Made by a program: the position numbers and the translations under genes
From: Erythroxylum novogranatense
Lineage: Eukaryota; Streptophyta; Magnoliopsida; Malpighiales; Erythroxylaceae
Direction of reading: 5' to 3'
DNA length: 64,000 nucleotides
NCBI GenBank assembly: GCA_029891385.1
Contig: CM057234.1
Location: 26,770,350 to 26,834,349, forward strand
Part shown: positions 8,510 to 53,793 of the stretch, piece by piece
Layout of the letters: every line of letters begins with the position of its first letter
Position numbering within the stretch: the first letter of the stretch is position 1
Notes under the pieces: model-generated
Told to the model about the DNA's origin: nothing
Database searches by the model: none
What the model saw: the letters and a program-made list of their open reading frames with translations, nothing else

Positions 8510-8593
8510 CCAAATATCATGAGCAACACATACATATCGTAGAAAGCAACATACCCTTAACACACTCTCTCCCTTCCTCTTCTGAGTTCTATC

Positions 8594-9958
8594 ATGGCAT
8601 TAAATAACTCAGTCACCATTGTTGAGACATGCCAAGTTTCACCATTTCCTGCCTCAGAAGAGTTCTCTCTCCCTCTTACTTTTTTTGACGTGTTCTGGCT
8701 CAATTTTCCATCGGTTGATGGCATATTGTTCTATGAAATCACTGATTTAGAACCTTTCTTATTCTACTCTACTATCCTTCCCAAACTCAAACATTCCCTT
8801 TCTCTTGCTCTCTTTCATTACCTTCCTCTTGCAGGACGCATCAGGAGGCATGCAGAGTCAAACAAACCCATTATCTTCTACAACCCTTATGACGGCATTA
8901 CACTCACCATCGCCGAGTCCGACGCTGACTTTAACTATTTATCCACTGACGACGTCCTTGACGCGAAGGAGTCACATCCTTATGTACCCAAATTGTCAAT
9001 AACCGATACTGATGTGTCTGTACTTGCTGCGCAAATTACCTTGTTTCCAAACAAAGGGTTTTCGATTGGTTACACCATGCACCATGCAGGTTTTGATGGA
9101 AAAAGCTTGGCTATGTTCATGAAAGCATGGAGCTACATACACAAACATTGCGATGGAAATGAGAAATCCCAATTCCAATTGCTTCAAGAGCTAGTTCCAT
9201 CTTTTGATCGCACCTTAATTAAAGACCCTTATGGCCTTGAGAAGTTGTTCCTTCAACAATGGGAGGCCATAACCAATTCCAAGTCAAGCTTGAAATTGAT
9301 TCCTGGCTTGTGCACTATACCCAACGTTGTACGAGCCACATTTCATTTGACTCGGGAAAACATAAATAAATTGAAGAAAATATTCGCATCCCAACAGATG
9401 AGCAATCAGCTTCACTTGTCTGCTTTCGTGGTTACATGTTCGTATGTACTGGTTTGCCGAATGAAAGCTCGAGGAGGAGACAGAAACAGGAGGGTTGATT
9501 TTGAGATAGCAGTGGACTATAGGGGGCTTATAGATCCTCCTCTTCCAGGGAATTATTTTGGCAACTGTATTTTTTACCATGGAATGATGGAATCTGCAAG
9601 AGAGTTTATGGAGGCCAATGGAGTCTTTCTTGTGGCTGAGAAAATCAGTGGCATTATAAAGGGATTAAAGAAGAATCTATTTGAAGGAGCTGAGGAAAAG
9701 ATACTAGAAATGAAGAATTCTGAACGTGGAGTAGAGCACATTGGTGTTGCTGGCTCGCCTCAGTTAAACGTTTATGGGAACGACTTTGGGTGGGGAAGAC
9801 CAAAGAAAGTGGAGATCTTATCCATAGACAGGACTGGCTCCATTTCTTTGTATGAGAGTAGAGACGGAAAAGGGGGCGTTGAGATTGGGTTGGCTATGCC
9901 AAGGCATGAAATGGAAGCTTTTGCTTCTCTATTTTTCAGTGGCCTCAAGGCTTTTTAA
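8594..9958 (+). CDS. BAHD acyltransferase, anthocyanin/phenolic-glucoside malonyltransferase clade
   Basis: A single-exon, 454-residue protein of the usual BAHD length. It carries the catalytic HXXXD motif as HHAGFDG (His164 to Asp168), the clade I signature YFGNC at 321-325, and the structural DFGWG motif at 397-401 followed by RPKKVE. Known family members are cytosolic enzymes that transfer an acyl group, often malonyl from malonyl-CoA, to a sugar hydroxyl of anthocyanins, flavonoid or phenolic glucosides. The substrate cannot be read from the sequence. The ATG (ATCATGGCA) is preceded by a TATA box and a CT-rich leader, and no upstream in-frame extension is needed. The N-terminal motif (VETCQVSP) and C-terminal end (FASLFFSGLKAF) match full-length relatives. 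A broken paralogue lies at 51.99-53.41 kb on the other strand. It looks intact and functional. Confidence 0.95.
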   Translation: MALNNSVTIVETCQVSPFPASEEFSLPLTFFDVFWLNFPSVDGILFYEITDLEPFLFYSTILPKLKHSLSLALFHYLPLAGRIRRHAESNKPIIFYNPYDGITLTIAESDADFNYLSTDDVLDAKESHPYVPKLSITDTDVSVLAAQITLFPNKGFSIGYTMHHAGFDGKSLAMFMKAWSYIHKHCDGNEKSQFQLLQELVPSFDRTLIKDPYGLEKLFLQQWEAITNSKSSLKLIPGLCTIPNVVRATFHLTRENINKLKKIFASQQMSNQLHLSAFVVTCSYVLVCRMKARGGDRNRRVDFEIAVDYRGLIDPPLPGNYFGNCIFYHGMMESAREFMEANGVFLVAEKISGIIKGLKKNLFEGAEEKILEMKNSERGVEHIGVAGSPQLNVYGNDFGWGRPKKVEILSIDRTGSISLYESRDGKGGVEIGLAMPRHEMEAFASLFFSGLKAF

Positions 9959-32518: not shown

Positions 32519-32770
32519 TGTTAAGTCAAAATGACTTCACATTTATGATTTTGATTAAGAACAAATACTCAGTAGAAAAACAAACAGAGAAAGAAAGAAA
32601 GACGGAGAAAGAAAAATAGACTAAGTAGAAAAACAGACGGATAATGAAAAACAGACGAAGTTGAAAAACAGACGGAGAATAAAAAACAGACGAAGTAGAA
32701 AAACAGACGGAGAAAGAAAAAAAAACAGACGAAGTAGAAAAGCAGACGGAAGCCAAAAACAGACACATAT
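32519..32770 (+). mobile_element. Copia LTR 5' portion (fragment)
   Basis: Starts TGTTAAGTCAAAATGACTTC like the other LTR copies (35598, 46730, 47407, 47518), followed by CAGACGGAGAA-type minisatellite. It then joins Copia RNase H sequence, an order not found in a real element, so a deletion or recombination junction lies near 32770. Confidence 0.7.
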
Positions 32771-32794
32771 GTTACTCCAATCTATTGCGACAAC

Positions 32795-33030
32795 ATCAGT
32801 GCAATCAATCTGTCAAAGAATTCGATTCAGCATTCAAGAGTGAAGCACATAGAAGTCAGACATCACTTTCTGAGAGACTATGTTCAGAGGAAGGTGGTGC
32901 GTCTACAGTTCATCGAAACAGAGTATCAGTAGGCAGACATCTTCACAAAACCATTAAGTGAAGAACGGTTTCAGAAGATGAGACGCAATCTCAACATGGT
33001 TATATTAAGTGAACAGTCGAGCTAAAGTAA
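32795..33030 (+). pseudogene. Copia RNase H C-terminal fragment
   Basis: Translation gives NLSKNSIQHSRVKHIEVRHHF-like sequence, then FIETEYQ, ADIFTKPLSEERFQKMRRNL. These are the conserved KHI..R.HF and DIFTKPL motifs at the end of plant Copia pol. The reading contains a stop in EYQ*AD, so it is inactive. It is followed within about 260 bp by the extra ORF at 33284. Confidence 0.85.
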
Positions 33031-33283
33031 CGACAAAACTAACGGCGTCAGAAACAGTGAGGTACAGCGGGTAACTTCTCTCACAAGAAAGTTGTGGAGG
33101 GAAAGTCTGATAATCTCGAGGATTTTAATGACTCTAGAACACACCGGACTATATTGCTACAAGTAGCCTAAAAGCAAAATCATTACGATTATTCTCATCT
33201 CCAGACAGTTCATTTTGCTTTCCCAATTCTCTCAAACATCCAACCCTAAAAAGCTTACCAGAGTCAGTTTTTCGTTCTGAAAC

Positions 33284-35360
33284 AATGGAGACAGCCATGA
33301 TATTCGGAAGACATGTGGATTTCGAGTCATTGAGGAATGATGGTATGGATGTGGAACCAGAGATTGTAAGAGCTGGTTGGAGGAACTTCTTTCGTATGCG
33401 AGAACCAAAGATACACAAATGAGGTTTTCGATTTTTGGAAGAATGCTCAGCTAGTAGACAACACTGTAGTATCATCAGTAGATGGTATATCCGTTGTTGT
33501 GACTAAGGAGTTAATAAAGAAGGTGACCGATTGTCCGTCAGTTGGTAAGACCCTCTCTACCATGGCCGGATGGATGTCCCAAGTCGGTATGAGAGAGGAA
33601 GATGTCAGAAGACAATTATATGGAGCCAATGATCCATGGGAGAGGAAGACCTCTAGTTTGGTTCCGAAGGCGAGGATTCTCCATGCAATTCTGTTTAATT
33701 GCATTTTACCCAGAGCAGGTTCAAGGCATTTGGTGACTACGTTGGATGAACAATGCTTGTTTTACCTGCTAAATCGCAATCCCATCGACTTACCCTTCTT
33801 AATCTTTCACTACATGATTAAGGGGATGAAAGATACAAATAGCTATCCTTACGGTATGTTGCTTACAAGGATTTTTAAGGAATCCGAAGTCCTCCTACAT
33901 CAAGGACATAGAAGGATTGTACCTGTGAACAGTAAGATTGATTCAATCACAATACGGAGAATGAGTCTAAGGACTGTAATCAAAGAAGAAGCCGACTCTT
34001 CAAGGAGAACTAGGACCGAGGGGGAGCATGTTTTGAAGATGACTCCCGCTTCAAGTTCTCGACCTCAAGTGAGTACGAGATCGCCTGCGGATGAATTAAA
34101 AAGAATGATTGGAAGACCGCTAATAAAACAGGCGAGTCCTCGAATCGAAGCAAGTCAATCCCGGAGGAAAGAAGAAGGTGCGCCAAAAAGACAAGGAGAA
34201 AGTCTTTTAAGTGAAATTACAAAGAAGGCAAAGAGATCACCGAGGATTCAGAAGAAGACTGTGTCAACTGCTGGGGAAGTTAGTGGAGAGAAAGAAAACG
34301 TTGATGTTGCTCAAATAGAAAAAGAAACTGAGCAAAGCACAGTTCAGGAAACCCCCATTGCTCAACAGGAGGAACCAGTGGAGCAAAGCCTGGTTCAGGA
34401 GAATCATAGTGAAGCACAACCAGAGGTAACGACATAATCAGACTCGGATAGTGATGAACCTTGTCTGATGGTATACAACTATCAAAAGTTTTAGAGAAAA
34501 CAGAAGCTGAAGATCAGAATGGTGGAAGTTGTTACCAGAAGGAGAACTACTATTGCAGTCTGTAGTCAACCAGTAAAGAAGATAGTGGCTGTGGTACGAC
34601 CTATGTTGATTACTAGTAACACATAGGAATTACTAAAAGAAGATGAAAAGATCTTCTACGATGCTTTGAGGGATGCTGCTACTAAGCCATACCCTTCAAA
34701 ACGTCCCTGCAAACCGTGTACTATTTTTCCGATCACTGAAAACACGAAAATAAAGGTTGCACCAAATATCCAGCCAAGATATCCTCTGGATTTGACTAAG
34801 GGGAAGTCAAAATTATTTCCTGAGGAAGAAGCTGGTGATGATCTGTCCGCAGATCAAATAGCAGAAGAAGTGCGAAAAATTGATGAGGCATGCACTTCTA
34901 CACAGAATAAAGATGAAGCGAGCTGCAGCTATACTGACAAGAAGGAAGATTGTCCAGTGGGGGGAAGAGTAATAACAGAGACATTTATTGACTTCCTTGT
35001 TCAGACAGTTCTGCGTATTAGACCTCTGTCTAATACACTGTCTATTCAAGCAGATGCATTACCCCTGCAAGGAAGACACTTGTCGATCTTTGCTGCCCAT
35101 TTGACTTAGATCTTCACGAAGTTGAAACGCTTATTCATCCACCAATGATTGAGATAAATGAAGAATACATTCCGACCTCAGATGCTTATACTACTTCAAT
35201 CCCATTCACTCCTCCCTCAGCAGATGTTGATCAAGCCTCCTCGTCGATTGACCGACCAGATAAACTCAGCAGATTACATGGTGAAGTCAATGAGATGAAG
35301 GAGACGATGAATGATCTGAAGAAGATGATGATAGAACTGCTAAAGAGACACCATCGTTAA
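33284..35360 (+). pseudogene. Extra ORF downstream of Copia pol, plant-transposon (Transposase_32-like) domain
   Basis: Starting at ATG 33284, a readable protein is broken by a frameshift near 33410, stops at 34435, about 34492 and 34622, and another frameshift near 35110. The longest block (33499-34437) contains ILHAILFNCILPRAGSRH, LVTTLDEQCLFYLLNRNPID, LPFLIFHYMIKGMKD and PYGMLLTRIFKE. This resembles the plant 'putative transposon protein' domain (PF20167-like), then a basic Ser/Arg-rich stretch and Glu/Gln-rich repeats. The last block ends with a coiled coil (LHGEVNEMKETMNDLKKMM). It occupies the position of env-like genes in some Copia elements (RNase H before, polypurine tract and 3' LTR after). 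Function unknown. Confidence 0.7.
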
Positions 35361-35585
35361 TCATTTTTTATTATAACAAATAGGGGGAGAATAAGAGCAG
35401 AAAAGAAGAGAATGAACAAGGGGAGAAGAGAATGAGAAGAAAAGAAGAGGGTTTTCAGAAAAGAAGGTGTGAATGAAGCAGACGAAGAAAGGAAGAAGTC
35501 AAAGAAGAAGTTCTGAAGATAAGTTTTTGTTTTCTTCAAAACTTTGTAATTTTGTTTTCTTTTATATATAATTTGTTATCATCAA

Positions 35586-35597
35586 AAAGGGGGAGAT
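35586..35597 (+). other. Polypurine tract of the Copia element
   Basis: AAAAAGGGGGAGAT lies immediately before the LTR start TGTTAAG, the usual Copia arrangement. Confidence 0.8.
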
Positions 35598-36571
35598 TGT
35601 TAAGTACAAATGACTTAACTTAGATATGATTTTGATGAATAACACAAAGAACAAACGAAAAAGAACACAGACGAAGTCAAGCAGACGCAGACACAAAGCA
35701 GACGTAGACGCAAAGCAAAGCAGACGCAGACACAAAACAGACGCAAAGAAAAGCAGACGTAGACACAAAGCAGACGCAGACGCTAAGCAAAGCAGACGCA
35801 AACATAAAGCAGACGCTAAGCAAAGCAGACGCAGACGCAGACGCAGACGCGAATAGTAAAGCAGACGCAGATTCAAATAGTAAAACAGACGAAGACGCGT
35901 ATAATAGATGCAGAAGAAGAATCAAGAAGCAGACGCAAGAGTCAGTTCGAGTTAGTTACAGAACTCAACTGATTAACCGTTTCTTTAAAGATTCAAGAAA
36001 CAAGAATCAAGAAGCAGTTGGAGATGAAGGCTATAAATACAAGTCGAAGTCGAAGATTGCAAAGTTAGACAACGTGAGAAACAGTGATCGTAAAAGCATT
36101 AAGTGAAAATTTAGCCGAGAGCTATTTTACTGCAACAAGCGTTTAAATACTTTTCTGAGAGAAAGTAGTACAGATAGCCTGCAGAGGCTAAGTGTGAAAG
36201 AATACTGGTTGTAGAAACCTGAAGAGGCTCGCAAAAGAATACTTGTAACGTTGAAGAGATACTGAAATCTCAGAAGAAACTTTGAGGATTGGACGTAGCC
36301 CATGGTTTGGGGTGAACCAGGATAAATCTCTGTGTCAACCACTCTCACTCTCTATCTCTGTTTTAGATTCAAGTTTTATTATTACCTAGTTCGTAAACAA
36401 AGAATTCAAAAGTTTTAATCAATCAGAATTTAACAAAAATTCTATAAAGAATTTTACTTCTGACAAACAGTTTCAAAAGAATCATAAAAAGGGGAATACA
36501 CAATTCAACCCCCCCTTCTCGTGCATTCTAATATCGTTTCTAAGTATTGTATTAACGTGTGATTCACTTCA
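35598..36571 (+). mobile_element. Copia 3' LTR, about 974 bp, most complete copy
   Basis: Begins TGTTAAGTACAAATGACTTAA. It carries a GCAGACGCAGACACAAA minisatellite (35670-35930), then CAACTGATTAACCG, a TATA-like GGCTATAAATAC at about 36029, and ends AATTCAACCCCCCTTCTCG...GTGATTCACTTCA. The same ending at 30430 supports the right border at 36571. No partner 5' LTR in intact context was found. Confidence 0.75.
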
Positions 36572-37440
36572 TAGCTTACTGAACTGAAAGGTTGTTCTTT
36601 GCTGGTTGAAATAGAAGACGTAAGTTTGATTGTTGTTATCTTCTTGCAATGAAGGATGTGATGTATTTAGGTTAAAGAATAAGAAGACAAAAGAAGAGGG
36701 TAGGAATTGTTTGATCAAAGTTAAGAGGAGAAAGGTTTCAAAGTTTAGATATAGAGGTATCAACAGGGCGTCTGGCAGGGAAGATATATAGTTTCGTAAT
36801 AAAAAATTAAAGTTGAAGAGTTCCACTGTATTAAACGAGGGGCAGTACTGCAAGATGATAAAGTGAAACAAAAATGATTTGCCTTGAGATACATTAAAAA
36901 TATTTTACATGTGTAGAGAAAAAGAGGAAACAAGAGTCGAACTAAGAGCGATTGCAAATCGCATGTTTTCCAAGAAGGATTAGTCAATTCGTATACTCCA
37001 AGAAGGATTATGGAATTGGTAACTGAAATTTAATGCGAGTTGGAAATGACATCAAGTGAACTGCTTTAAATAAAGAAGAACAAGAGGAAGTGCGAAGAGA
37101 AAAGTGAGAAGAAACGGAGAAGCAAAGATAAGAGGAAGTGTTGAGAGAAAAATAAGACAAAGCGCGGAGACAACAGTAAGAGGAAGCGCTGGTAACATGA
37201 AGGACGACCAAAGTAAGAAGTTGAAGAGCAGACGATCAACGCATCATTTCGATTTTGCATATTTTTGTATTCAAAGTTAGTTTATGTCAAAACAGGTTTT
37301 TGTTAAATGATGACAAGAGTAAGACGAAGTGAAATTCAGACATTGAAAAGTAGACGAAAGAAGAAAAACAGACGGAAGGTTGAAAAGGAGACGAAAGCAA
37401 AAGCAGACGGTAGCTGAATCGTTAGTCCGTATTACGATGA
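36572..37440. repeat. Mosaic repeat (copies of 28.5-29.4 kb modules)
   Basis: 36580-36900 matches 28500-28760 and 45.9-46.2 kb. 36950-37090 matches 28940-29060. 37330-37410 is CAGACGAAAG minisatellite. No gene. Confidence 0.6.
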
Positions 37441-38472: not shown

Positions 38473-40600
38473 CTAAATGGCACATACAGAAATAATTAAA
38501 GATGATGTTATAGATAAAATCAAGATGAAGTAAGAATAAAAAGCACCTGAGAGGGGTGAAAGTGAAGTCTGTTGTAGTTCATGAGCATCAATTTTCTGGC
38601 AGTAAACAACAGTAAATCGTTGCACCCCATCTGAAGACCGAGTGTTTGCTGGCTTCACGTGGAGAAGAAAGGTATCGCTTTTCAATTGTGCGTACAATTT
38701 CTCCAAGGGGAGATCCATGTTCTTATAACGGAAAACAAAAAATGTCCATTGTCAGTGGAATAAGTAGATGAAGATATTTGGGGCTGATTAAACTAGAAAT
38801 GTAGATGAAAGAACGAAGGGAAAATATAACCTCATTGTAATATTTCATAGCTTCAACGGCGGGTAAGTTTAATAGTTTCTCAGCGAGGTCGCCGAAAATG
38901 GAAGCCGTTATAGTTCCGGTTTCGTCGGTCAAATCCATGTCATATCGGCATCTGTTCAATAAAGTTAGAATAATCAAAAAGGAGGAGCGTGGGCAAAAAA
39001 GTAGTGCAGGTGACATGGAAGTAAAAAAGTGATGTGAAAATTATGGAATGGACACGGAAGGAATAAGCAAGAAATGGAAGATTGCAAATAGAAGGCAGAA
39101 ACCTTGGCTCTGCTGTCTGTTTTCTCTACAGTAATTACAAGTGAAGAGAACTCCAGATGCAGCAGCTGTAGACCGGAAGCATTTGTTGCATGCCATATAC
39201 CAAAATTTTTGCAAAATGTGCTGAAAGAAAATTTTGGCTTCAATCCATGACATCTAAGGAAAAGTCGATAAGAATGTTCAGAGGAAGAAGTTTCAAATTC
39301 AATATCTCACTGGAATATGCAGATGCGATTACCTTGGGGGTAGAATCTAGAGACATGATCTTGGTGATATTCTGGTGAGATCCAGAAGATATACGAGGAT
39401 TATATCTAAAGTAAGATTTTCCACTGACGAGGTTTTTGATGTGGCTGTTATTTCGTTGTGCCCTGTAACATAATAATTATATAGCTGACAAAATAAAGAA
39501 ATTTTAAAATTCGTATATAATTTGTAACAAAATGTTAGAAAGGTTGTACGTAACATAATGGATTACCAATTTTTGAGATCGGCAACTTCTTGTATGGGTG
39601 GGTCAACGAGGATGGCTGAGTCGAACCACGTTGACAATGCAACAGCTAACATTTCAAAATCATTTTCTGAGATAGAATGAAAAGGGATAGAGTAAGATGT
39701 GTTATTATGAGGAAGGAAAAAATACCGTTAAAGAAATTGACTTTGAGCTTTGTGCAAACAATAACTAGATGAGAGTGAAGTGATTCCATAATCTTGTGGC
39801 CCTCGTTCTCAACAAAACAATTCCAAAGCGATAGTATGACTGTTTGTTGCCTAAAAAAAACAAGAGATTACGAGAAGATGTTAAATTTGTTTATCTCTGA
39901 CGCAAAATAGTAACAAAGATACAGAGTGAGAATTACTCTTTATTCATGATAACAAATTTTTGGACAGTTGAAGCTTTTCCGTCTCTCATCACATCTTTTT
40001 TTTGCAACACTTCAACGACGATGACTAAAATATCTATCATGTGTTAAAGATTAATGTAATCACTAACGGAAAATTTTTTGTAAGATTTTATGAACAAATG
40101 TATTAAGCATCTAACCAACAATTTTTTGCTTGTCATCCACATAATCCATAAGACTTTGGAAAGGTGTTAAGTTGAAAATCAGAGGGATGATTGCATCGTC
40201 TTGTGTGACAGGTTCGATGACCGTGCGACTTGTGAGAATCCACTGTATCTTCAAATTTTTAGTTTGATACTGAGGGGGAATTGATTTAACAATTGCATTA
40301 GAAATGATATATTCCTGACACGGCTGTAAGATGTCCCCAATTCTTTAGATATCATTGTTGAATATGATACCCTCAACTTGCTATCCCTGTTAATTATGAA
40401 GGAATTATCGATAGGTAAGTTGATAAAATGTAAAAGGAAGAAAGTGTAATTGATATACCTCTGAATCGCAGAAGACAAACTTTTGTCTTTTAGTCGATGA
40501 ATTAACCGAAGCAACGACCTGTTATTTTTCTTGGACCATCACTTGACAAGACCATGATTACGCTCCAGGGAAAATATTCTTCATCAATAAACGATTATCC
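38473..40600 (-). pseudogene. Helitron RPA70-like single-stranded-DNA-binding protein gene
   Basis: On the minus strand, pieces read in RPA1 order. An OB-fold start (VMVQEK...RQKFVFCDSEG-like) lies near 40560, and IPLIFNLTPFQSLMDYVDD near 40170. The C-terminal zinc-finger OB fold has ACNKCFRSTAA with CNYC (39190-39110) and then CRYDMDLTDETGTITASIFG (about 38950-38890). Several segments are separated by AT-rich spacers with GT/AG-type ends, so it is probably a multi-exon gene. It is thought to protect single-stranded DNA during rolling-circle transposition. Intactness of the spliced frame was not verified. Confidence 0.75.
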
Positions 40601-40726: not shown

Positions 40727-42500
40727 CTAATTGAAAAATTTCACGGAAAACAATAGTCCTTGTCTTTTTTTCGAAGTCTGAAGATTGAAAAGTTCCAGGA
40801 ATAATAAGAACTTTAATCGATTCAGAGTTCGCGCCCGATGAGCTACATATAACTGTCCGTGTGAGAATACAGGTTGACGGAGATAAATTCCAACATGATC
40901 AAGTGTTTGACCTTGGGATTTGTTTATAGTCATTGCAAAACACAAACGAATTGGAAATTGTGTTCTGATGAAAGGAATTCCATTTTTTCGTTCTCCGAGA
41001 TTGCAAGGAATCTTAGGTATAAAATGATTTTTCCTTTGTGAGGTCCAAAACAATTTCAGCTGAAATTGTATGATCTTTTAGTTGTGCGCATATCAACCTT
41101 GTTCCATTGCATAATCCTTCCGTTGGATTTAAATTTCTCGAAGCATAATTGAGAGCCTTCTTTCAGAAAAGCTTATGAGGAGGTAGGCCTTTAGGTTCAA
41201 AGAATTGAGAAAATCTTGATAATCACTTGATGTCCGCGATCAACCGTCTTGTCAAAACTCACATATGAGTGCAAATCTCTGTTAATTTTGAATCATGATG
41301 TCATTAATTTCATCAACACAACTATTTGTTGGACATAGCACGCATCTGTTTATCATCTGATATGGGTCGGATGAATATAAGCTTAGGTCAGGGAAGACGT
41401 TTTCCAATAACCTAGTGAGGATAATTGTATATTAGGAAAGTATAATCGTAATGGGAAAAAAGGTTAGTATGTCGTTTAATGAAAAAAGAAGTGACCTATT
41501 AACAGATTGATCTTTGTTGTCGTAAGGAATAATGAGTTCATTTGGTAAACATATTTGATCTTTTTCATCCATTGGTTCAACGCCTTCTCCAACCCGCAAT
41601 AAGAAATCACAAAAATTTGGATTTGTGATAGCTCTCATATTTGTCGTTAAACATAATTTAGAGATGTGGCGCCAGAGATGTGAATTTAGAAGACTTGAAT
41701 CAATGAGTTGTTGTTTCGTTGCTTGGTGAATAATTGGCAATGTTTGACGAAAGTCGCCACCAAATACAACAATTTTACCTCCAAAAGGCTGATCAAAGTT
41801 CATTATATCTTGAAGTAAGCTGTGAAATGCTTCGATGGCTTCTCGTTTTGCCATGGAAGCCTCGTCCCATAAAATAAGGCTGGATTCAAATATCAATTTT
41901 GCAACACTGCTCTGTTTGCTCAACTGACAAACTTTTTGCTTTGATAAATCAAGCGGGATTTTAAATCTTGAGTGAGTGTCCTACCGCTTTGGAAGAATTG
42001 ACGCAAGAACGCTCGATGTCGCGATCGCGATTGCAATATGTCCTTATGATCGTAAATTTGCAAGAAGAGCACGATATAAGAAAGTTTTACCTGTTCCCCC
42101 GGGACCATCGATAAAATAACTTGCAGTCGTTGAAGTGAGAACTTAATTCATTGTTAAATCAAATATGTGCTTTTGCTGGCTGTTTAGTTTTGATTGTAAT
42201 AAGAGGTCTTGTTCATCAATCTCTATATTCATCTCACTTTCTACCTCCTTAGTCTGCGTCTGGCGAATCGATCTGAAATTCATGTTCGATTGAAATGATA
42301 ATCGCCTAAGCTTTTTCCCATTTGTTCCAGATTTATTGATATCTTGAAGAGCCAATTTTGTAATATCATCAGATGTATACGTATTAGAGGAAGAATAAGC
42401 ATATAGGTAGTCAGAGCAGAGGTGGCCTGTGAAAGTTTCCCAGAGTTCCCTAGGATTTGCCGGTGAACAATAGAACAAGAGTGTAGCAAATAACAATCGA
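40727..42500 (-). pseudogene. Helitron helicase domain (SF1, Pif1-like)
   Basis: Walker A GPGGTGKT is encoded at 42083-42106. Walker B LILWDEASM and motif III VVFGGDFRQTLP lie in the frame 41923-41432. Motif VI-type [20 protein letters not shown] lies at about 40950-40890. The entry before Walker A (LNSQQKHIFDLTMN) is followed by a stop or frameshift, and a further frameshift separates Walker A from Walker B, so the gene is broken as it stands. Between 41430 and 41053 motif IV-V sequence is poorly preserved. In Helitrons this domain is fused to Rep and unwinds the donor strand. Confidence 0.85.
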
Positions 42501-42879: not shown

Positions 42880-44110
42880 TCAATAAATAAGACAAATTAG
42901 CATCTTTGCGAAGAAGCATTGTTGATCCGGAAGGTGAATTTGGAGTATATAGATGGATGGATTAATCTCTGCGGCGGAATTCATATATCGCCATAAAGCT
43001 TGGGGTGAAATCAACGGCCTTCTTGAAATTAGTGATTTCGTCAATATCGGACTGGTTTCTTGGTCGTTGACGCTAAAGTTCACAAGGTCATGGCCCTTAA
43101 ATACATATTTGTATAAATATTTAACAAGCTTCACGATGGAACATATTTCAACATTAATGTGGCAGTCAAGCAACATCAGAAGGTACGGGTTATGAGGAAC
43201 CACCCATCTATTATCAACCTCGTGTCTCGAAATTTTAACTTTTCTTCCATTATCTCTACGTCTATAGCACGGATAACTGTCTTCGCCATGGACAGTGAAA
43301 GGAGTAAAATCCTTGGGTAATGACTTTTGCATACACCATTTCTCACGCAGTGGCACTGTTTGTTCATAAAACCACAAGGACCGTGGATCATATGCTTAAT
43401 GACAAGAGAATATAATCTGGAATTGTGATCGAGGATAGGTATTTCAGGGGATATGATTTGATCATAGGAATCTGGATTCAACAACTTAAATTGTGGTTGA
43501 AGTATTAGAAGCAAGTGAGCATGAGGAATCCACGCTTTGAAATTCAATTACGTAAACAAATGCAGCAACATCTCCGAATATTCCTTTTGATCAACTCATT
43601 TTCGAATTTCAAATTTATACGAACACTCTGGACAATAAATCTGTGCATCTTGTGTTTTTTGTGGAATTTAAGATTCTCTTGTATTTCCTTCCACATAGGG
43701 TTGCAAGTTATAGTGAGAAAAATATCTGGTTTGCCATATTTTTGCACTAGAGCCATTGCATCCAGATAATGCTGTTTCATGTCCCTTAGGCCGCTGATAA
43801 ATGAAGCTGGGAGGACAACTCGCCGGCCAATTGTAGAAGCTTCAGTTTGACCAATATTAACGCTATCTAAAACACCCGGCAAAATTTCTGATCATATTTC
43901 GTTATGTTTTTTCCTATGGAAGTCAAGCCGTGATGTTTCAATCTTTATATAAGAACCAACAACGAATTGTTGTAGTAGTCTTAAGCTGTGGATAAGCATG
44001 GATTCATCATAACTTCTCATTTGAAGTCGATAGCAGTAATACTCTCTGGCAGATACTACGTCATGTTTATAGTTCGCTTCTTGAGTAATTAGTAATAGTA
44101 AGAAAAAAAT
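42880..44110 (-). pseudogene. Helitron Rep (HUH endonuclease) domain
   Basis: The minus-strand exon begins after an acceptor near 44080 (EYYCYRLQMRSYDESMLIHS region). One stop (near 43890) precedes SEILPGVLDSVNIGQTEAST, then GRRVVLPASFISGLRDMKQH and KPDIFLTITCNP. The metal-binding HUH motif appears as IPHAHLLL (about 43520). The tyrosine motif is KYLYKYVFKGHD (about 43110), with both tyrosines. A frame change lies near 43545. Rep nicks and joins DNA during rolling-circle transposition. Key residues survive although the frame does not. Confidence 0.85.
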
Positions 44111-44168: not shown

Positions 44169-45420
44169 CTAACCTATGTTTTCGAGAGCAAATAATTCGG
44201 CTGCTTCAGTAAAAGTGCATAAAGGAGCACCGCTTGTTTGATCAGAACCATTGGTGCTGTTTTTTTGTGAATTTAACCGCTTAATGCGAGGATGCCATCC
44301 TGATTCACCCCGTGGAAACAGAAGTGGGTATTGAAGTGGGTCGTAGCATGCATAATAAGATTGAATTTTATAGCTCGGACCTGAGTGACTGTAGACTTGG
44401 ATATGAGGAGATTTATCATGCTGTTCATCATCAATTTCAGTCCATATAGCAACTACTTGTGATGCAGTAGGAAGATTGTAAACGCGCTGATCAAGACCCG
44501 GATAACATCTCAGAACAATTTGGTGATTTTGAAGGGAAGGAATATCTTTAAGACAGCGAAAGAACCTAGCATAAGGGTTATCTTCAAGAATTGTCATAAT
44601 CAACTTCAATGTACTTTCACGAAGTTTATCAGAACTGCTCACCCTTTGTTGTAGTTCTTCATCGGTATCAAAGAAATAAAGTTAGATTCCAGATACTTTA
44701 TTGCTTGTCGGCACTAAACTGTCAAGGAAATGGTAAACTTGTCCTTGAACACGGAATGTATAAACTCCCATTGTGTTTTTGTCGAGTCACGATCATATCG
44801 GCTCCATAGGAAGTGAAAGCTACATTGTTATTGTATGTACGAACATTCTTTCTGAAATGTTCGGATTCTTCGTCGCTATTTAGAAACAAAGACTTTAAAG
44901 CATAAGGCATCTGAGGACCAATAATAGAAATTTGTCTGGACGAGCAACAAAACGATGGAGGTTCAAGGTAAAATCGTTTTGCGTTACAATATTGACAATC
45001 TGGAACAGAAGGGAGCTATTCAGGTTCAACTAGTAAATTCTGCAAGGATGTTAATGTTGAAGGAAATGTGCGATGATTTATCCCTTGAAACATATAAAAA
45101 GGACATTATCATTATGTAGACTAGTTAGGTTGGAAATAGTTTCAATATAGTGAAAAAAAGGTACCTTCATTTATGTGATCAGCATGGATGTCAATACATC
45201 GGTCACGTATTTGATGATAAGAGGGTTCATGAATCGGAAGTTGGCTGGTGGAAGGTTCGATATTAATGAAAGAATCCTTCTGTTGAGGAGTAATTCTTTG
45301 CTGAAGTGTAGATGAAGTGGAAGTTGTGTTTTTTGCAGCTAGATTTTCTCTATATCGTCGCAACAATTCTTGTTTTTTTTTCATTTGGCATTTCAACATA
45401 TTTTTGACGTCTTTTAGCAT
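44169..45420 (-). pseudogene. Helitron N-terminal exons
   Basis: 45420-45142 encodes a Lys-rich start (MLKCQMKKKQELLRRYREN) and ends at a good donor (GAAG|GTACC at about 45157). 44910-44722 contains YNNNVAFTSYGADM, the 'FTSFGA' segment that precedes Rep. 44642-44169 contains NPYARFFRCLKDIP, YNLPTASQVVAIW and YPLLFPRGESGWH and ends at a donor (ATAG|GTTAG). Exon structure is plausible, with at least two introns. A stop after the FTSYGAD exon (about 44690-44660) indicates damage. Confidence 0.75.
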
Positions 45421-46729: not shown

Positions 46730-47640
46730 TGTTAAGTCAAAACGACTTTACATAAATGATTTTGATGAACTACAAATAATGATGAAAAAGGAGACGATGA
46801 AAAGAAGAAGGAAGTTGAAAAGCAGACGCAAGTTGAAAAGCAGATGGAAGCAAAACCAGACGGAAGCAAAAGCGGACGAAAGTTGTGCAAAAGTAGACGG
46901 GAGTAAAAGCAGACGAAAGCAAACCACATGTGAATTAAGAATCAGTTTGAGTTTGTTACAAAACTCAATTGAATAACCGGTTCTTTCAAGATTCAAGCAA
47001 TCTCTGTTCTGGTCGTCTTCTTCTTGCGAAAAACAGAAAATGATTGTAGAAGGTCAACCTGTCAGGAAGAAGAGTAAAGGGAAGCAATGACACTAATTTC
47101 CAAAGAAGAGAAAATAATTGTAGAAGGTCAACCTGTCAGGAGTAGGACGTGAGAAATCTATCACCTATGAATTGAAACATCAATTTCTGTTATGGTCCTC
47201 TTCTTCTCTTTGCACTCCTCATGTTTGCTTACTTCTGGAATACGTTCACGTATGAATTGAAACGTCAATCTCTGTTCTGGTCTACTTCTGCAATACGCTA
47301 TTGGCAGTGTTTGACATTATTATAGCGGCTAGAGGATTGTACCTATTAATTGAAAACTCAATCTACGTGACAGAAAAAATCTGTGCAGTTAAAAAGGACG
47401 AGATTGTTAAGTCAAAACGACTCGACATCAATGATTTTGATGAAGTACAAATAATGATGAAAAAGCAGACGATGAAAAAAAGATGAAGAAAAATAGATGG
47501 AACCTATTGAAAAGCATGTTAAGTCAAAATGACTTGAGATATATCATTTTAATGAATAACAGACGAACAAAAACAGACGAAGTACAAAAACAGACGAAGT
47601 AGAAAAACAGACGGAGAATGCGAAAGCATAAATAATATGT
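46730..47640 (+). mobile_element. Three consecutive Copia LTR 5' fragments
   Basis: TGTTAAGTCAAAACGAC or a close variant begins at 46730, 47407 and 47518. The first two are preceded by AAGGAGGAGAT or AAGGACGAGAT, so two copies of the internal-end plus LTR-start junction lie in tandem. 46730-46995 continues through CAGACG minisatellite into the LTR middle (TCAATTGAATAACCGG). The third fragment is direct LTR-in-LTR. Confidence 0.75.
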
Positions 47641-47850
47641 TGACTTCGACTCTTATTTATAACCTTCGTGTTCAACTGCTTCTTCAATCTTGCTTCTTGA
47701 ACCTTGAAACAAGCAGTTATTTAGTTAAGTTCTGTCTTTTGCTTTTGCTTCCGTCTGCTTTTCAACTTGCGTCTGTTTTTCTTCTTTCGTCTACTTGTCA
47801 CATTTCGTCTGCTTTTCAAGTTCACGTAAATATGAATTTATTGTCCTAAA
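47641..47850 (-). mobile_element. Copia LTR middle fragment, inverted
   Basis: The minus strand has CAGACGAAATG-type minisatellite, then GTTATAAATAAGAGTCGAAG, as in the plus-strand LTRs at 30108 and 36029. Confidence 0.65.
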
Positions 47851-47874: not shown

Positions 47875-47982
47875 TATGATATATTTAACCATGTTGAGAT
47901 TTCTTCTGATTTCCTTGAACCGTTCTTCACTTAATGGTTTAGCGAAGATGTCCGCCCATTGATACTCTGTTTCAACGAACTG
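47875..47982 (-). pseudogene. Copia RNase H tail, inverted fragment
   Basis: Minus-strand translation: QFVETEYQWADIFAKPLSEE then RFKEIRRNLNMV. It is the same segment as 32.9-33.0 kb but keeps TGG where that copy has a stop. The TNL fragment starts at the fusion point. Confidence 0.85.
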
Positions 47983-48515
47983 TCTATTTCTAAAAATACA
48001 TTAGAAATGCATGACTTAATGGAAGAAATGGGTAAGGAAGTTGTACGTCAAGAATCTAGATATCCCAATACACGTAGTAGATTATGGGATCCAAAAGATG
48101 TCTTTAAAGTACTTGTAGAGGACAAGGTAAAATTAGTCACTTACTTTCTATATGAGATTTTTAAGTTGTGTATTGATATTATCTTAAGAAAAATATATAT
48201 TGCAAAACTTTGAACTTATGGTTTTCAAATAAAGATATTTTAAACATACCTTCAATTAATATAATATAATTTTGAAAATCATTTTAACTTTCTTTTTTAC
48301 TAAAAAGAAATATTTGATTGTTATTTGTTAGGGATCAGAAGCAGCGGAAAGCATAAGGTTAGATGTGTCCAAAATACAGGAGATAGATTTAAATGCAGAA
48401 GTGGATAGATGGCCATGGTTATTCGTTAGGGGATGTAGCCTTGTTCAAGTTCAATTTAGATGAACATGGAAGTACAGAAATCCTGAAGTGCGGCGTCACT
48501 CCATTATATTCCTAA
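47981..48515 (+). pseudogene. Captured TIR-NBS-LRR (TNL) resistance-gene fragment with intron
   Basis: The first exon (47981-48126) encodes LEMHDLMEEMGKEVVRQES and SRLWDPKDVFKVLVEDK, the MHD-containing end of the NB-ARC domain. It ends at DK|gtaaaatt. The intron (48127-48331) ends in ttgttag. The second exon (48332 to about 48403) continues in phase 0 with GSEAAESIRLDVSKIQEIDL, the typical first post-NB-ARC exon of TNLs. After a short gap, 48435-48515 encodes VALFKFNLDEHGSTEILKCG and VTPLYS then stop, like the C-terminal jelly-roll (C-JID) end of TNLs. TIR, P-loop and LRR parts are missing, so it cannot be a working receptor. Flanked by Copia LTR and RNase H fragments. Confidence 0.82.
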
Positions 48516-48689
48516 TATCAGGATCAATTCTATTAAGCATTCGAGTTTCCTACTCCAGTGTCCATTATGTTTTATAGCAAATTTGATGTAGTTCGTCACA
48601 GCTCGTTACTTCTCTCGCAAGGAAATTGAACTTCAAATCGCTTTTCGATTAAATGCCTTTTGTGCTTAAATACATTTTTTTGTTCGTAT

Positions 48690-48965
48690 AAATGCGCTTT
48701 TAAATCGTCTTTATGTCTTCGTCTGACTTTTGTATTCTCCGTCTGTATTGTTAACTTCGTCTACTTTTTCAACTCCGTTTATATTTTTAACTTCGTCTAC
48801 TTTTTCAACTCCGTCTATAATTATAACTTCGTCAACTTTTTCAACTCCATCTTTTTTAACCGTCTACTTTCTCAACTCCAATCTGCTTTTTCTCTTCTTT
48901 ATACATCTTTTCAACTTCGCTCATTATTCATCAAAATCATATATGTAAAGTCATTTGACTTAACA
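48690..48965 (-). mobile_element. Copia LTR 5' portion, inverted
   Basis: The minus strand begins TGTTAAGTCAAATGACTTTAC at 48965 and continues leftwards with GACGAAGTT-type minisatellite. It faces the RNase H tail at 47.9 kb in the same orientation, so the TNL fragment may sit inside a rearranged minus-strand Copia copy. Confidence 0.75.
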
Positions 48966-50350
48966 AGTAAGACGATCAAAATAAGACGCTGGAAAATAGC
49001 ATGAAGCGATATGTGCAATTACCATATTATTCTATCTAATATTACTATTCTAGAAATCGCAAGATGATAAATCTCCTCATATCCAAATCTGCACTACGTG
49101 TTTAAAAACTTTACAAAGCTATAGGCCATCTGTATACAACCTAAAGAGGTATCTTATAGACAAAGAGACTTCAAAGTGTTACCCAAAAACTTATTCATGC
49201 ATTATGAACGAGTACAAGAAAGATCAATTGTTATCATCTCACTTTCACTTTGTCTTTACTCTTAATCTTAACTTTCAAAGAAGTGAAACGATCAAAGTAA
49301 GACATTGAAAAGCAGACGAAAGCAAAAGCAGACGCAAGCTGAAAAACAGACGAAAGTAGAAAAACAGACGGAGTTGAAAAGCAGACAGAAGTAACACAAC
49401 TAAAGTAGCACGATAAAATTTAGACAAAGCAAAAGTAAGACGATGTCGAAGTAAGACGATGAAATAAAGACGTTGAAAAATAGCACGAAGCGATATGTTC
49501 AGTTACCATATTATGCTATCTAATATTACAATTTTTGAAATGGCAACATGATAAATCTGCTCATATGATGTTTCATCCAGACGAAAGTTATCCAAAAGTA
49601 GAGGGCAGGAAAAGCAGACGATGGAAAGCAGACGAAAGCAAATCACCTCCGAATTAAGAAGCGAGACGATAGAAAAAGCAAATCACCTCTCAATTAAGAA
49701 GCGAGACGATATAAGTGAGACGATAGAAGTGAAACGATCAAAGTCAGATATTGAAAAGTGAAAAGCAGACTGAAGTAAGACATAAAGCAGAAAAAGTTAG
49801 AGCAAGCGAAAGTAAGACACATAAAACTTTACAAAGCGATATGTCACATTCTTGAAAAATAGCACGGTTTATATGCGAGTTACTATATTATTCAAATCAC
49901 CACGTCTTCTAAAACTTTATGACTATAAGAAAATCTTGGTCAACGATTTGCAATCTTCCTATTGCATCACAAGTAAATGCTATATGGACGAGACCGACGA
50001 TGAATCGCTTATATCCAAGTCCGTGACTACGCCTTCTTTGTTCCAGCATCCTTTTTGATTAAAGTAGATGATTCTGGTGATAATCCACGAAACCTCTCGC
50101 TTTGACAGAGGAGTTCCTTTCGACATGAGAAAATATATGTACAAGGAAAGAGGATCTTTGGTGGTGAAGTAGCGACTTTGCAATTTATGATAAATCTCCT
50201 CATATCCAAGTCTGCACTACGCCTTCTTTGTTTGAGGCACTCTTTTTCAGAAGTCTCCACTACGTCTTCTTTATTCGAGCCATCTTTTTTCAGGATGGCA
50301 ACATGATAAATCTGCTCATATCCAAGTCTGCTGTAGGCTAACAGTTGGTG
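48966..50350 (+). repeat. Mosaic of Helitron gene fragments and CAGACG minisatellite
   Basis: The phrase ACCATATTATTCTATCTAATATTAC recurs with variants near 49021, 49505 and 49868, as at 30842. GATAAATCTCCTCATATCCAA recurs at 49063, 50190 and 50310, the HDKSPHIQV-encoding segment of the Helitron. 49940-50030 repeats ATCTTCCTATTGCATCACAAGT. CAGACGAAAG minisatellite lies at 49310-49400 and 49580-49640. Confidence 0.65.
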
Positions 50351-50770: not shown

Positions 50771-51400
50771 ATTAGGTCAGAAGATTGCGTGCATATCGCG
50801 CGAAGACACAACATTCAACAAACAGAAAAAGAGGAAGACAAGGGCTGAGAGGAAAAACAAAGAAAGAGATCGCGCCTGACAAAATGACAAAATATTTGGG
50901 TCAGAAGATTGCGTGTATATCGCGCGAAGACACAACATTCAATAAACAGAAAGAAAGAATATAAGCCGCTGGATTAACTGGACGATAGGGATCTATTTCG
51001 TGGTCGTCCATCCCGTCGTATTTGGGTCAGAAGATTGCGTGTATATCGCGCGAAGATACAACATTCAACAAACAGAAAAAGAGGAAGACAAGGGCTGAGA
51101 GGAAAAACAAAGAAAGAGATCGCGCCTGACAAAATGACAAAATATTTGGGTCAGAAGATTGCGTGTATATCGCGCGAAGACACAACATTCAATAAACAGA
51201 AAGAAAGAATATAAGCCGCTGGATTAACTGGACGATAGGGATCTATTTCGTGGTCGTCCATCCCGTCGTATTTGGGTCAGAAGATTGCGTGTATATCGCG
51301 CGAAGACACAACATTCAATAAACAGAAAGAAAGAAAAAGAAAGAATATAAGCCGCTTGATTAAATGGACGATAGGGATCTATTCCGTGGTCGCTCATCCG
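50771..51400. repeat. Tandem duplication, 250-bp unit, about 2.5 copies
   Basis: Units start at 50771, 51021 and 51271 (partial). The landmark AGGGCTGAGAGGAAAAAC is at 50841 and 51091, exactly 250 bp apart, and the units are nearly identical. Each unit itself contains GGGTCAGAAGATTGCGTGTA twice. This is the youngest-looking duplication in the window. Confidence 0.93.
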
Positions 51401-51989: not shown

Positions 51990-53414
51990 TCCTTTTCCCC
52001 TCTTAACAAAAAGAGAAGTAAAAGCTTCAGTTTCATGCCTTTTTAAGGCCAAGCCAATCTCAACACCTCCAAGTCCATCACTTGCTTCGGTCAAAGCTAT
52101 TGCCCCTGTCTTGTCTATGGACGTAATGTCTACTTTCTTTGGTCATCCCCACCCAAAATCACAACTGTAGACCTGAAACTGAGTCGACCCTGCCACACTT
52201 AAACAATCTCCTGGTTTAAGAGTAAAAAGAAATGGCAGTAGCTTCTCCATTCCTTCCAAAGGTCCCTTCTCCAATTCCTTAATTGCGTTACTGATTCTAA
52301 GTACGGTCTTGGCCAGCCCATAATTTTCCTCCATGAAGATTCTAGCTTCTGCAGCAAAGCCTTTGCCAGTAACACAGTTTCCAAAATAGTTGTTTGGGAC
52401 CGGAGGGTCTAGACGTTTTCTAACATCTGCGGTGAAAGCGAAGTAAATGCTTGAGTTACCATCCTCTTGCCTTGCTTTCAACATACAAATTGATGTGTAA
52501 GCACATGTGAGTACAAAACTTGATAAGTGAATCGATGTTGTGGAATTAACAACATGAGTTTCCTCCTTGTTGAGAGCCTCCAGTTGTGACAAGACCTTTT
52601 CCCTTAACCTTTTTATGTCGTCACGATTCAACTGAAACGTAGACCGAACCACGTTTTGTGGTACAAATATGTCTAGCCGTAGCTTCAAGCTTCAAGCTTC
52701 GGGGGTTGCTGTCGTTACCCAACATGCTCCGGTTGACTTCTGCCCATTGGTTCAAGAACACCATTTCAAGTCTAGCTACGTCTTTGACGACGGTCCTGTC
52801 GAGGAAAGGAGTAAGTTCTGGTGGCAAGATAGGTGGATTCTGTTCCTTTAACAATTGTCTACAAATATAAGTCCATGCTTTAATGAATAAGGTTGTAGAT
52901 CTCCCATCAAGAATCGCATGATGACTATTAACAGCAATACAAAACCCTTTGTCTGGAAACGTTGTTGCTTGCAGAGCAATGGGTGAAGAGACAGTATCAG
53001 CACTTGGCAACTGGGGTATAAACGGACGTAACTCGGCAGCTTCCTTGACTCCGTTACTGGACAGAAAATCAAAGTCTGCGTTGGAGTCGGCTACAGAGAG
53101 TGAAACAGTGTCATTAGGAGTGTAAATGATAATAGGTTTAGGAGAATCTGAGGGCCATGTAAGACGACTTGGCCAGCTAGAGGTAGGAAGTGAAGGAGTG
53201 TTTGTGAGAGTGATTGCTTCAGTTTGGGGACGACAATAGACATGAAGTATACGGGATTTAACTCCGTGATTTGGTAGAAAAATATGCGGTCCACTGGGGG
53301 AAATTGAAACCATAACGTGTCGTAAAAGGTGAGAGGGAGAGAGAAGTCGGCGGCCGTCTCCGGCGACTTGTCCGTCGGAGCAACTTGACATACCTCTAGT
53401 ATTTGGGTAGACAT
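51990..53414 (-). pseudogene. BAHD acyltransferase pseudogene, paralogue of the 8.6 kb gene
   Basis: The minus-strand start MSTQILEVCQVAP is at 53414. The reading is colinear with the intact gene: FSLPLTFYDTLWFQFPPVDR, the HXXXD motif as HHAILDG, VPQNVVRSTFQL, NNYFGNC and CDFGWG. Three lesions are visible. A frameshift lies near 53155 in the PLAGQ region. A 7-bp tandem duplication (AGCTTGA twice, about 52681-52697) shifts frame before VPQNVV. A TGA follows directly after DFGWG (about 52143), where relatives have Arg. Beyond it PKKVDITSIDKTG and VEIGLALKRHE continue, but the normal stop is lost. Motifs are intact, so loss was recent. The parental enzyme would have been a clade I malonyltransferase-like BAHD. 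Confidence 0.92.
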
Positions 53415-53793
53415 AGAAGATGCCACACGACGTGGTGGAACTCAGTAGACAAAGACGATCTGATTTGATTTGCTTCTTTTTCTTTTCAATAACGAGGCGG
53501 CGAAATTAAATAGATACAAGTTTTAACTATTAACATTGATCCATTAAAAAATGTTAGATTTAAAAATATTCTAAAAATTGTAGGACTGTTTGTGTGTTTA
53601 AGAAAATGAGACATAGATTCGAAAGAGCCGGCCTCATTAGCATTTGGCGATTGGCCAATTCGATACTTCTAAGAGTAACACATTCACATGGCATGTGTGG
53701 AATCATCGGTCGATTGGTTGTGGGACTAACAACGTATGTCATTATCAGATATAGCTACAACCGGGAAAATCGTTCCAGACATCAAGCATCGAT
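53415..53793. other. Upstream flank of the BAHD pseudogene
   Basis: A TATA-like CTATTTAATTT on the minus strand near 53500 could be the old promoter. A 73-codon plus frame (53594-53815) has no recognisable family and runs into the hairpin. Confidence 0.4.

What the first reader, a model, noticed from the sequence alone, without database searches (positions are those of the whole stretch)
47981..48515. TNL resistance-gene fragment with a phase-correct intron embedded in transposon debris
The MHD-end exon, a 205-bp intron with GT/AG ends and the next exon join in phase 0, and a C-terminal-like CGV..LYS end follows 30 bp later, with the LRR missing. An intron means DNA-level capture, not retrotransposition. 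Helitrons are the known agents of such capture and a Helitron and many Helitron scraps are next door. It could also feed small RNAs against TNL genes.
Basis: partly seen in the sequence, partly recalled or inferred. Interest (0 to 1): 0.75.

Follow-up and report, generated by a model that had tools for sequence, protein, structure and literature searches.

The report
Dead resistance-gene scrap in retrotransposon debris
A short, broken piece of a plant disease-resistance gene, still holding an intron that genes of its class usually carry at that spot, lies among broken retrotransposon pieces and is most likely an inert relic.

Summary
Window 47983-48569 (+) is a TNL gene fragment; 7 of its 10 hits are Erythroxylum novogranatense (coca) TNLs, best 83%. 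The 205-bp intron (48127-48331) joins donor residues 522 and 523 without gain or loss and fits the conserved phase-0 NBS/LRR intron of TNLs (PMC3352924). No other TNL piece was detected in 64 kb. A minus-strand Copia tail ends at 47983, and minus-strand pieces of one LTR type lie on both sides. The fragment is thus antisense to the Copia pieces bracketing it, so its intron does not exclude an RNA intermediate. Helitron capture is unsupported, though the scan for Helitron ends was crude. Most likely it is an inert relic joined into a broken Copia derivative. The whole-genome search did not complete; copy number, donor DNA and capture agent stay untested.

The parts
47983..48126 (+). TNL exon piece: end of the NB-ARC winged-helix domain with the MHD motif (donor P0001 residues 475-522)
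   Evidence: tblastn E 5e-22 with P0001; frame and boundary; Pfam WHD_ROQ1 PF23282 E 0.0012, below the curated cut-off; Roq1 in the PDB E 0.007
48127..48331 (+). 205-bp GT/AG intron, phase 0, at the NBS/LRR junction
   Evidence: colinear join of P0001 residues 522/523; 1 of 20 GT/AG pairs gives it; conserved phase-0 intron in TNLs stated in PMC3352924 (passages)
48332..48403 (+). start of the next TNL exon (P0001 residues 523-546)
   Evidence: 79% identity to P0001, E 5e-5
48403..48405 (+). internal deletion junction: P0001 residues 547-1099 (LRR region) missing, frame changes
   Evidence: end and start of adjacent tblastn matches in frames +2 and +3; printed sequences
48405..48569 (+). post-LRR C-terminal TNL piece (P0001 residues 1100-1153, drawn alignment to 1155), out of frame, in-frame stops at 48513 and 48534
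   Evidence: tblastn E 7e-13; translation and stop positions
47883..47983 (-). Copia RNase H C-terminal tail (name from recalled motif), cut off where the TNL piece begins
   Evidence: 85% identity over 101 bp to 32905-33005, match ends at 47983; Pfam gave no match for the 69-aa frame
47642..47822 (-). distal part of a CAGACG-repeat LTR (positions 278-454 of the LTR copy at 35598), with TATA
   Evidence: blastn; exact TATAAATA on - at 47661
48717..48965 (-). first part of the same LTR type (TGTTAAGTC start, CAGACG array)
   Evidence: LTR positions 1-45 matched at 48965-48924; match to the start of the LTR at 32519
48570..48716 (.). largely unassigned 147 bp between the TNL piece and the LTR array
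   Evidence: no convincing match to 6 window regions on both strands; one 31-bp match to the 33-kb locus just exceeds 100 shuffles; the alignment reaches about 8 bp into it

Best explanation
It is a dead fragment of a TIR-NBS-LRR gene. A stretch from the MHD end of the NB-ARC domain through the class-typical phase-0 intron into the LRR exon is joined, with loss of the LRR, to the post-LRR end. The resulting 587-bp piece lies antisense inside what looks like a broken Copia-LTR derivative. Shown: gene identity, intron, internal deletion, frameshift and stops, the Copia/TNL junction, and minus-strand pieces of one LTR type on both sides. Inferred: that these flanking pieces are one element, that the TNL piece was joined there by illegitimate recombination or template switching (in break repair or in the element's own replication), and that it now does nothing.
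For: Three collinear TNL pieces, same strand. Best relatives are Erythroxylum TNLs, legume ones 50-56%. Frameshift and two stops. No other TNL match below E 0.037 in 64 kb with 10 fetched proteins as queries, and 5 of 5 local comparisons of missing parts with the flanks, neighbouring sequence and intron within the range of 20 shuffles. Copia match ends at 47983. LTR pieces on the minus strand on both sides, and a second locus (32519-33005) with the same order: LTR start, CAGACG array, Copia tail. LTR retrotransposons carrying gene fragments are known: 425 intact maize elements, 36 of them Copia (PMC2774510, passages).
Against: CAGACG arrays and LTR pieces are common in this window, also in plus orientation just left of the fragment, so the flanking order may be coincidence. 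About 147 bp beside the fragment are unassigned. No complete LTR pair and no target-site duplication was shown. TRIM and Bs1 captures described in PMC4717578 (passages) hold exons only, so an intron in an LTR-element capture is unusual unless the insert is antisense.
Confidence: 0.6

Rival explanations
1. Helitron capture: a rolling-circle element copied TNL genomic DNA with its intron and its ends have since decayed.
For: A Helitron lies on the minus strand, spanning at least 41.4-43.9 kb (PF14214 E 5.5e-20, PIF1 E 5.4e-40), and a scrap alike to its neighbourhood lies right of the fragment (49934-50004 matches 44496-44424 at 82%). Rice Helitrons include one with an NBS-LRR fragment (PMC2575219, table passage). 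That Helitrons carry introns and non-contiguous pieces is recalled.
Against: The immediate left neighbour is Copia sequence that ends at the TNL start, and LTR pieces separate the fragment from Helitron sequence on both sides. No hairpin-CTRR 3' end in 37-52 kb, but that scan is crude: shuffles gave only 0-2 and decayed ends would be missed.
Confidence: 0.15
2. Relic in place: a TNL gene stood here, was invaded by LTR elements and lost all but this piece by deletions.
For: All three TNL pieces are in order and on one strand; the frameshift and stops fit decay.
Against: No TIR, NB-ARC core or LRR piece detected elsewhere in the 64 kb; the lowest other tblastn E is 0.037, in the Helitron helicase frame.
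Confidence: 0.2
3. A small-RNA source that tunes TNL genes.
For: 83% protein identity to a living-looking TNL over 72 residues; fragments of this kind could in principle yield siRNAs (general knowledge).
Against: No inverted copy in the window at E 1e-4; folding no better than shuffles, z -0.70; the one nearby LTR piece with TATAAATA (47661, minus) reads away from it. No small-RNA data were at hand.
Confidence: 0.03

Closest known systems
TNL genes of Erythroxylum novogranatense (K2173_025400 = P0001 and six paralogues)
   Same: Sequence and residue order on both sides of the intron; C-terminal piece matched by P0001, P0007 and P0005
   Different: Here only 126 of P0001's 1193 residues have a counterpart (475-546 and 1100-1153); LRR deleted, frame broken, two stops
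LTR retrotransposons with captured gene fragments (maize survey PMC2774510; Bs1 and TRIMs as described in PMC4717578; passages seen)
   Same: A gene fragment bracketed by retroelement parts
   Different: No intact element here; the fragment is antisense and holds an intron, whereas the TRIM and Bs1 captures described hold exons only
Helitron or Pack-MULE gene-fragment captures
   Same: Genomic fragment with intron and an internal skip
   Different: No Helitron 3' end in a crude scan; between the fragment's two end regions no exact direct 7-mer and one inverted 7-mer

Membership tests
TNL (TIR-NBS-LRR) gene | Homology to TNL proteins at the MHD end, with the phase-0 NBS/LRR intron | tested here: met
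   intron rule from PMC3352924 (passages)
TNL (TIR-NBS-LRR) gene | TIR, NB-ARC core and LRR present in an open frame | tested here: not met
   no other piece detected in 64 kb; frameshift and two stops: a fragment, not a gene
Helitron-captured fragment | Lies between Helitron termini (5' TC, 3' hairpin plus CTRR, AT target; recalled) | tested here: inconclusive
   0 hairpin-CTRR ends on either strand in 37-52 kb, 20 shuffles gave 0-2; 5' ends not tested
LTR-retrotransposon-captured fragment | Lies between two LTRs of one element | tested here: inconclusive
   partial minus-strand LTR pieces on both sides, no complete pair, no target duplication shown
LTR-retrotransposon-captured fragment | Several copies sharing the same capture junctions | not testable with these tools
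   The genome search 'own' did not complete (10 calls); only the window itself was searched: no second copy at E 1e-4
Pack-MULE | Terminal inverted repeats and 9-bp target duplication (recalled) | tested here: inconclusive
   exact 7-mers only, at the fragment's own ends: one inverted, none direct between 47950-48015 and 48540-48600; none between 47950-48015 and 48690-48740. Decayed or more distant ends would be missed

The most novel reading that the evidence does not exclude
A Copia-type element took up TNL genomic or pre-mRNA sequence in antisense, kept the intron because antisense introns are not spliced, and spread it. LTR transcripts through such copies would then be antisense to living TNL genes and could silence them.
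Probability: 0.07. Interest if true: 0.5.

Novelty: new member of a known kind. Interest (0 to 1): 0.15.

Why it matters
As found, little: gene fragments in plant transposons are common in the maize survey seen (PMC2774510, passages). It is a worked example that an intron alone does not prove DNA-level capture, because orientation relative to the carrier decides, and that a seeming C-terminal end can be a nonsense mutation. If copies with the same junctions exist, they would test antisense capture by LTR elements.

Tried and rejected
Search of the window's own genome (genome search, where own): the same request was sent ten times and never answered. Plasmid collection: no match. Rfam gathering scan of the window: 0 matches. 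Short-protein search for an annotated copy of the same chimaera (91 aa): 2 candidates, 1 hit (P0011, 93 aa, 60% over 48% of the query, source without a name), which ends about where the first exon ends and is not this chimaera. Pfam gave nothing for the Copia-like tail or for the Helitron-side frame 44172-44681; those names rest on recalled motifs. Pfam names in the neighbourhood that did reach their cut-offs: Helitron_like_N, PIF1, SH3_retrovirus, Transposase_32, Transferase. Local search for missing TNL parts in the flanks and the intron: 5 of 5 comparisons scored within the range of 20 shuffles. Considered and rejected: a functional truncated TNL (frame broken, stops), a chance open reading frame (E-values), a hairpin precursor.

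Full report
What is there. Reading the window and translating it confirms an exon ending in VLVEDK at 48126, an intron 48127-48331 and an exon beginning GSEAAES at 48332. A protein search with the joined 72 residues found 10 proteins at E <= 0.001 among 53 candidates. Seven are Erythroxylum novogranatense TNL proteins (70-83% identity, best E 2.2e-32) and three are legume TNL-class proteins (55-56%). The window is therefore probably from Erythroxylum or a near relative; this is inference, since the window's own genome could not be searched. All seven Erythroxylum proteins come from a contig of the same length, 98.6 Mb.

Anatomy against the closest protein, P0001 (1193 aa). Residues 475-522 lie at 47983-48126 (the reported match, 472-537, overruns into Copia sequence and into the intron), 523-546 at 48332-48403 and 1100-1153 at 48405-48563; the drawn alignment runs on to 48569. 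Nothing is gained or lost at the intron. Residues 547-1099, which hold the LRR, are missing, and the reading frame changes at the join: the spliced exon frame runs 19 foreign residues to a stop at 48461, while the C-terminal piece is in the next frame and has stops at 48513 and 48534. Over about 70 aligned residues the fragment is 86% identical to P0001 and 71-79% to the six other Erythroxylum proteins, while P0001 is 79-93% identical to those six. The fragment thus sits on a longer branch, as expected for decay.

The intron is ordinary. PMC3352924 (passages) states that an intron between the NBS and LRR domains is conserved and phase 0 in the TNL class; PMC4743996 (passages) says TNL intron features in Solanaceae subfamilies are highly conserved, with a few losses. 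So the phase-correct intron is most simply the gene's own.

Other TNL parts. tblastn of all 10 fetched proteins against the 64 kb, listed to E 1, shows no match outside the fragment below E 0.037; that lowest one lies in the Helitron helicase frame. Optimal local alignments of missing parts to the flanks and the intron score within the range of 20 shuffles in 5 of 5 comparisons. This goes against a relic in place but does not exclude one.

Surroundings. To the left, a minus-strand Copia tail (47983-47883) is 85% identical to 32905-33005. At the second locus the sequence reads on as Copia RNase H (my reading by recalled motifs), while here the match ends at 47983, where the TNL begins; the breakpoint is good to a few bases. 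Further left, 47822-47642 matches positions 278-454 of a CAGACG-repeat LTR, minus strand. To the right, 48965-48717 is the start of that LTR type, also minus strand. At 32519-33005 the same order occurs: LTR start, CAGACG array, Copia tail. The simplest reading is one broken Copia derivative on the minus strand in which TNL sequence replaces part of the Copia tail. The weak points are the roughly 147 unassigned bases at 48570-48716, the abundance of these repeats, with plus-strand LTR pieces at 46730, 47405 and 47517, and the lack of a complete LTR pair or target duplication.

Why orientation matters. The TNL piece is on the plus strand and the Copia and LTR pieces directly bracketing it on the minus strand. 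In RNA read from such an element the intron would be antisense and would not be spliced (general splicing knowledge; inference for this case). The intron thus does not tell DNA-level from RNA-level capture. Against an RNA route, PMC4717578 (passages) reports exon-only captures for TRIMs and Bs1.

Helitrons. A Helitron is next door on the minus strand: Helitron_like_N at 43547-43891 and PIF1 at 41435-41980. A scrap matching 44424-44496 lies to the right of the fragment at 49934-50004. A repeat shared with 28.8 kb lies at 47251-47338 and may belong to the Helitron's side; that was not shown. No hairpin-plus-CTRR end was found on either strand in 37-52 kb, but the scan is crude and shuffles gave only 0-2. 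LTR pieces lie between the Helitron sequence and the TNL on both sides. Capture by a Helitron is possible but unsupported.

Function. No second copy or inverted copy of 47984-48716 was found in the window at E 1e-4, the RNA fold is ordinary (z -0.70), and the one nearby LTR piece with an exact TATAAATA reads away. With a broken frame and two stops the fragment is most likely inert. Small-RNA output could not be tested.

Literature seen. Passages of PMC3352924, PMC4743996, PMC2575219, PMC4717578 and PMC2774510; outline and abstract of PMC9648698; search listings. I make no claim that anything is absent from print.

Noticed in passing
35598 to about 36.58 kb (end not determined) and pieces at 29.2-30.7, 32.5-32.8, 37.3-38.2, 46.7-49.5 kb: A Copia-type LTR family with CAGACG-like tandem repeats in its first part (array 35679-35903); its pieces adjoin Copia-like coding scraps at the repeats in several places.
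   Followed up: partly
32519-36575: Cut-off LTR, Copia tail, a frame matching PF20167 (putative plant transposon protein) and a further LTR copy preceded by GGGGGAGAT: looks like a non-autonomous retroelement (inference).
   Followed up: partly
8561-9955 (+) and 52621-53505 (-): Two acyltransferase-family (PF02458) sequences converge across about 42 kb of mostly transposon debris: one open frame of 465 codons and one whose tested piece of 294 codons matches only in part, with neighbouring frames that look like the rest.
   Followed up: no
50772-51336: A 250-bp unit repeated in tandem (97-99% alike) with inner 124-126-bp units, also present in weaker form at 31.7-31.9 kb.
   Followed up: no
38476-39306 (-): Frames that look like a replication protein A gene downstream of the Helitron helicase; recalled likeness, Pfam gave no match to the two pieces tried.
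   Followed up: no
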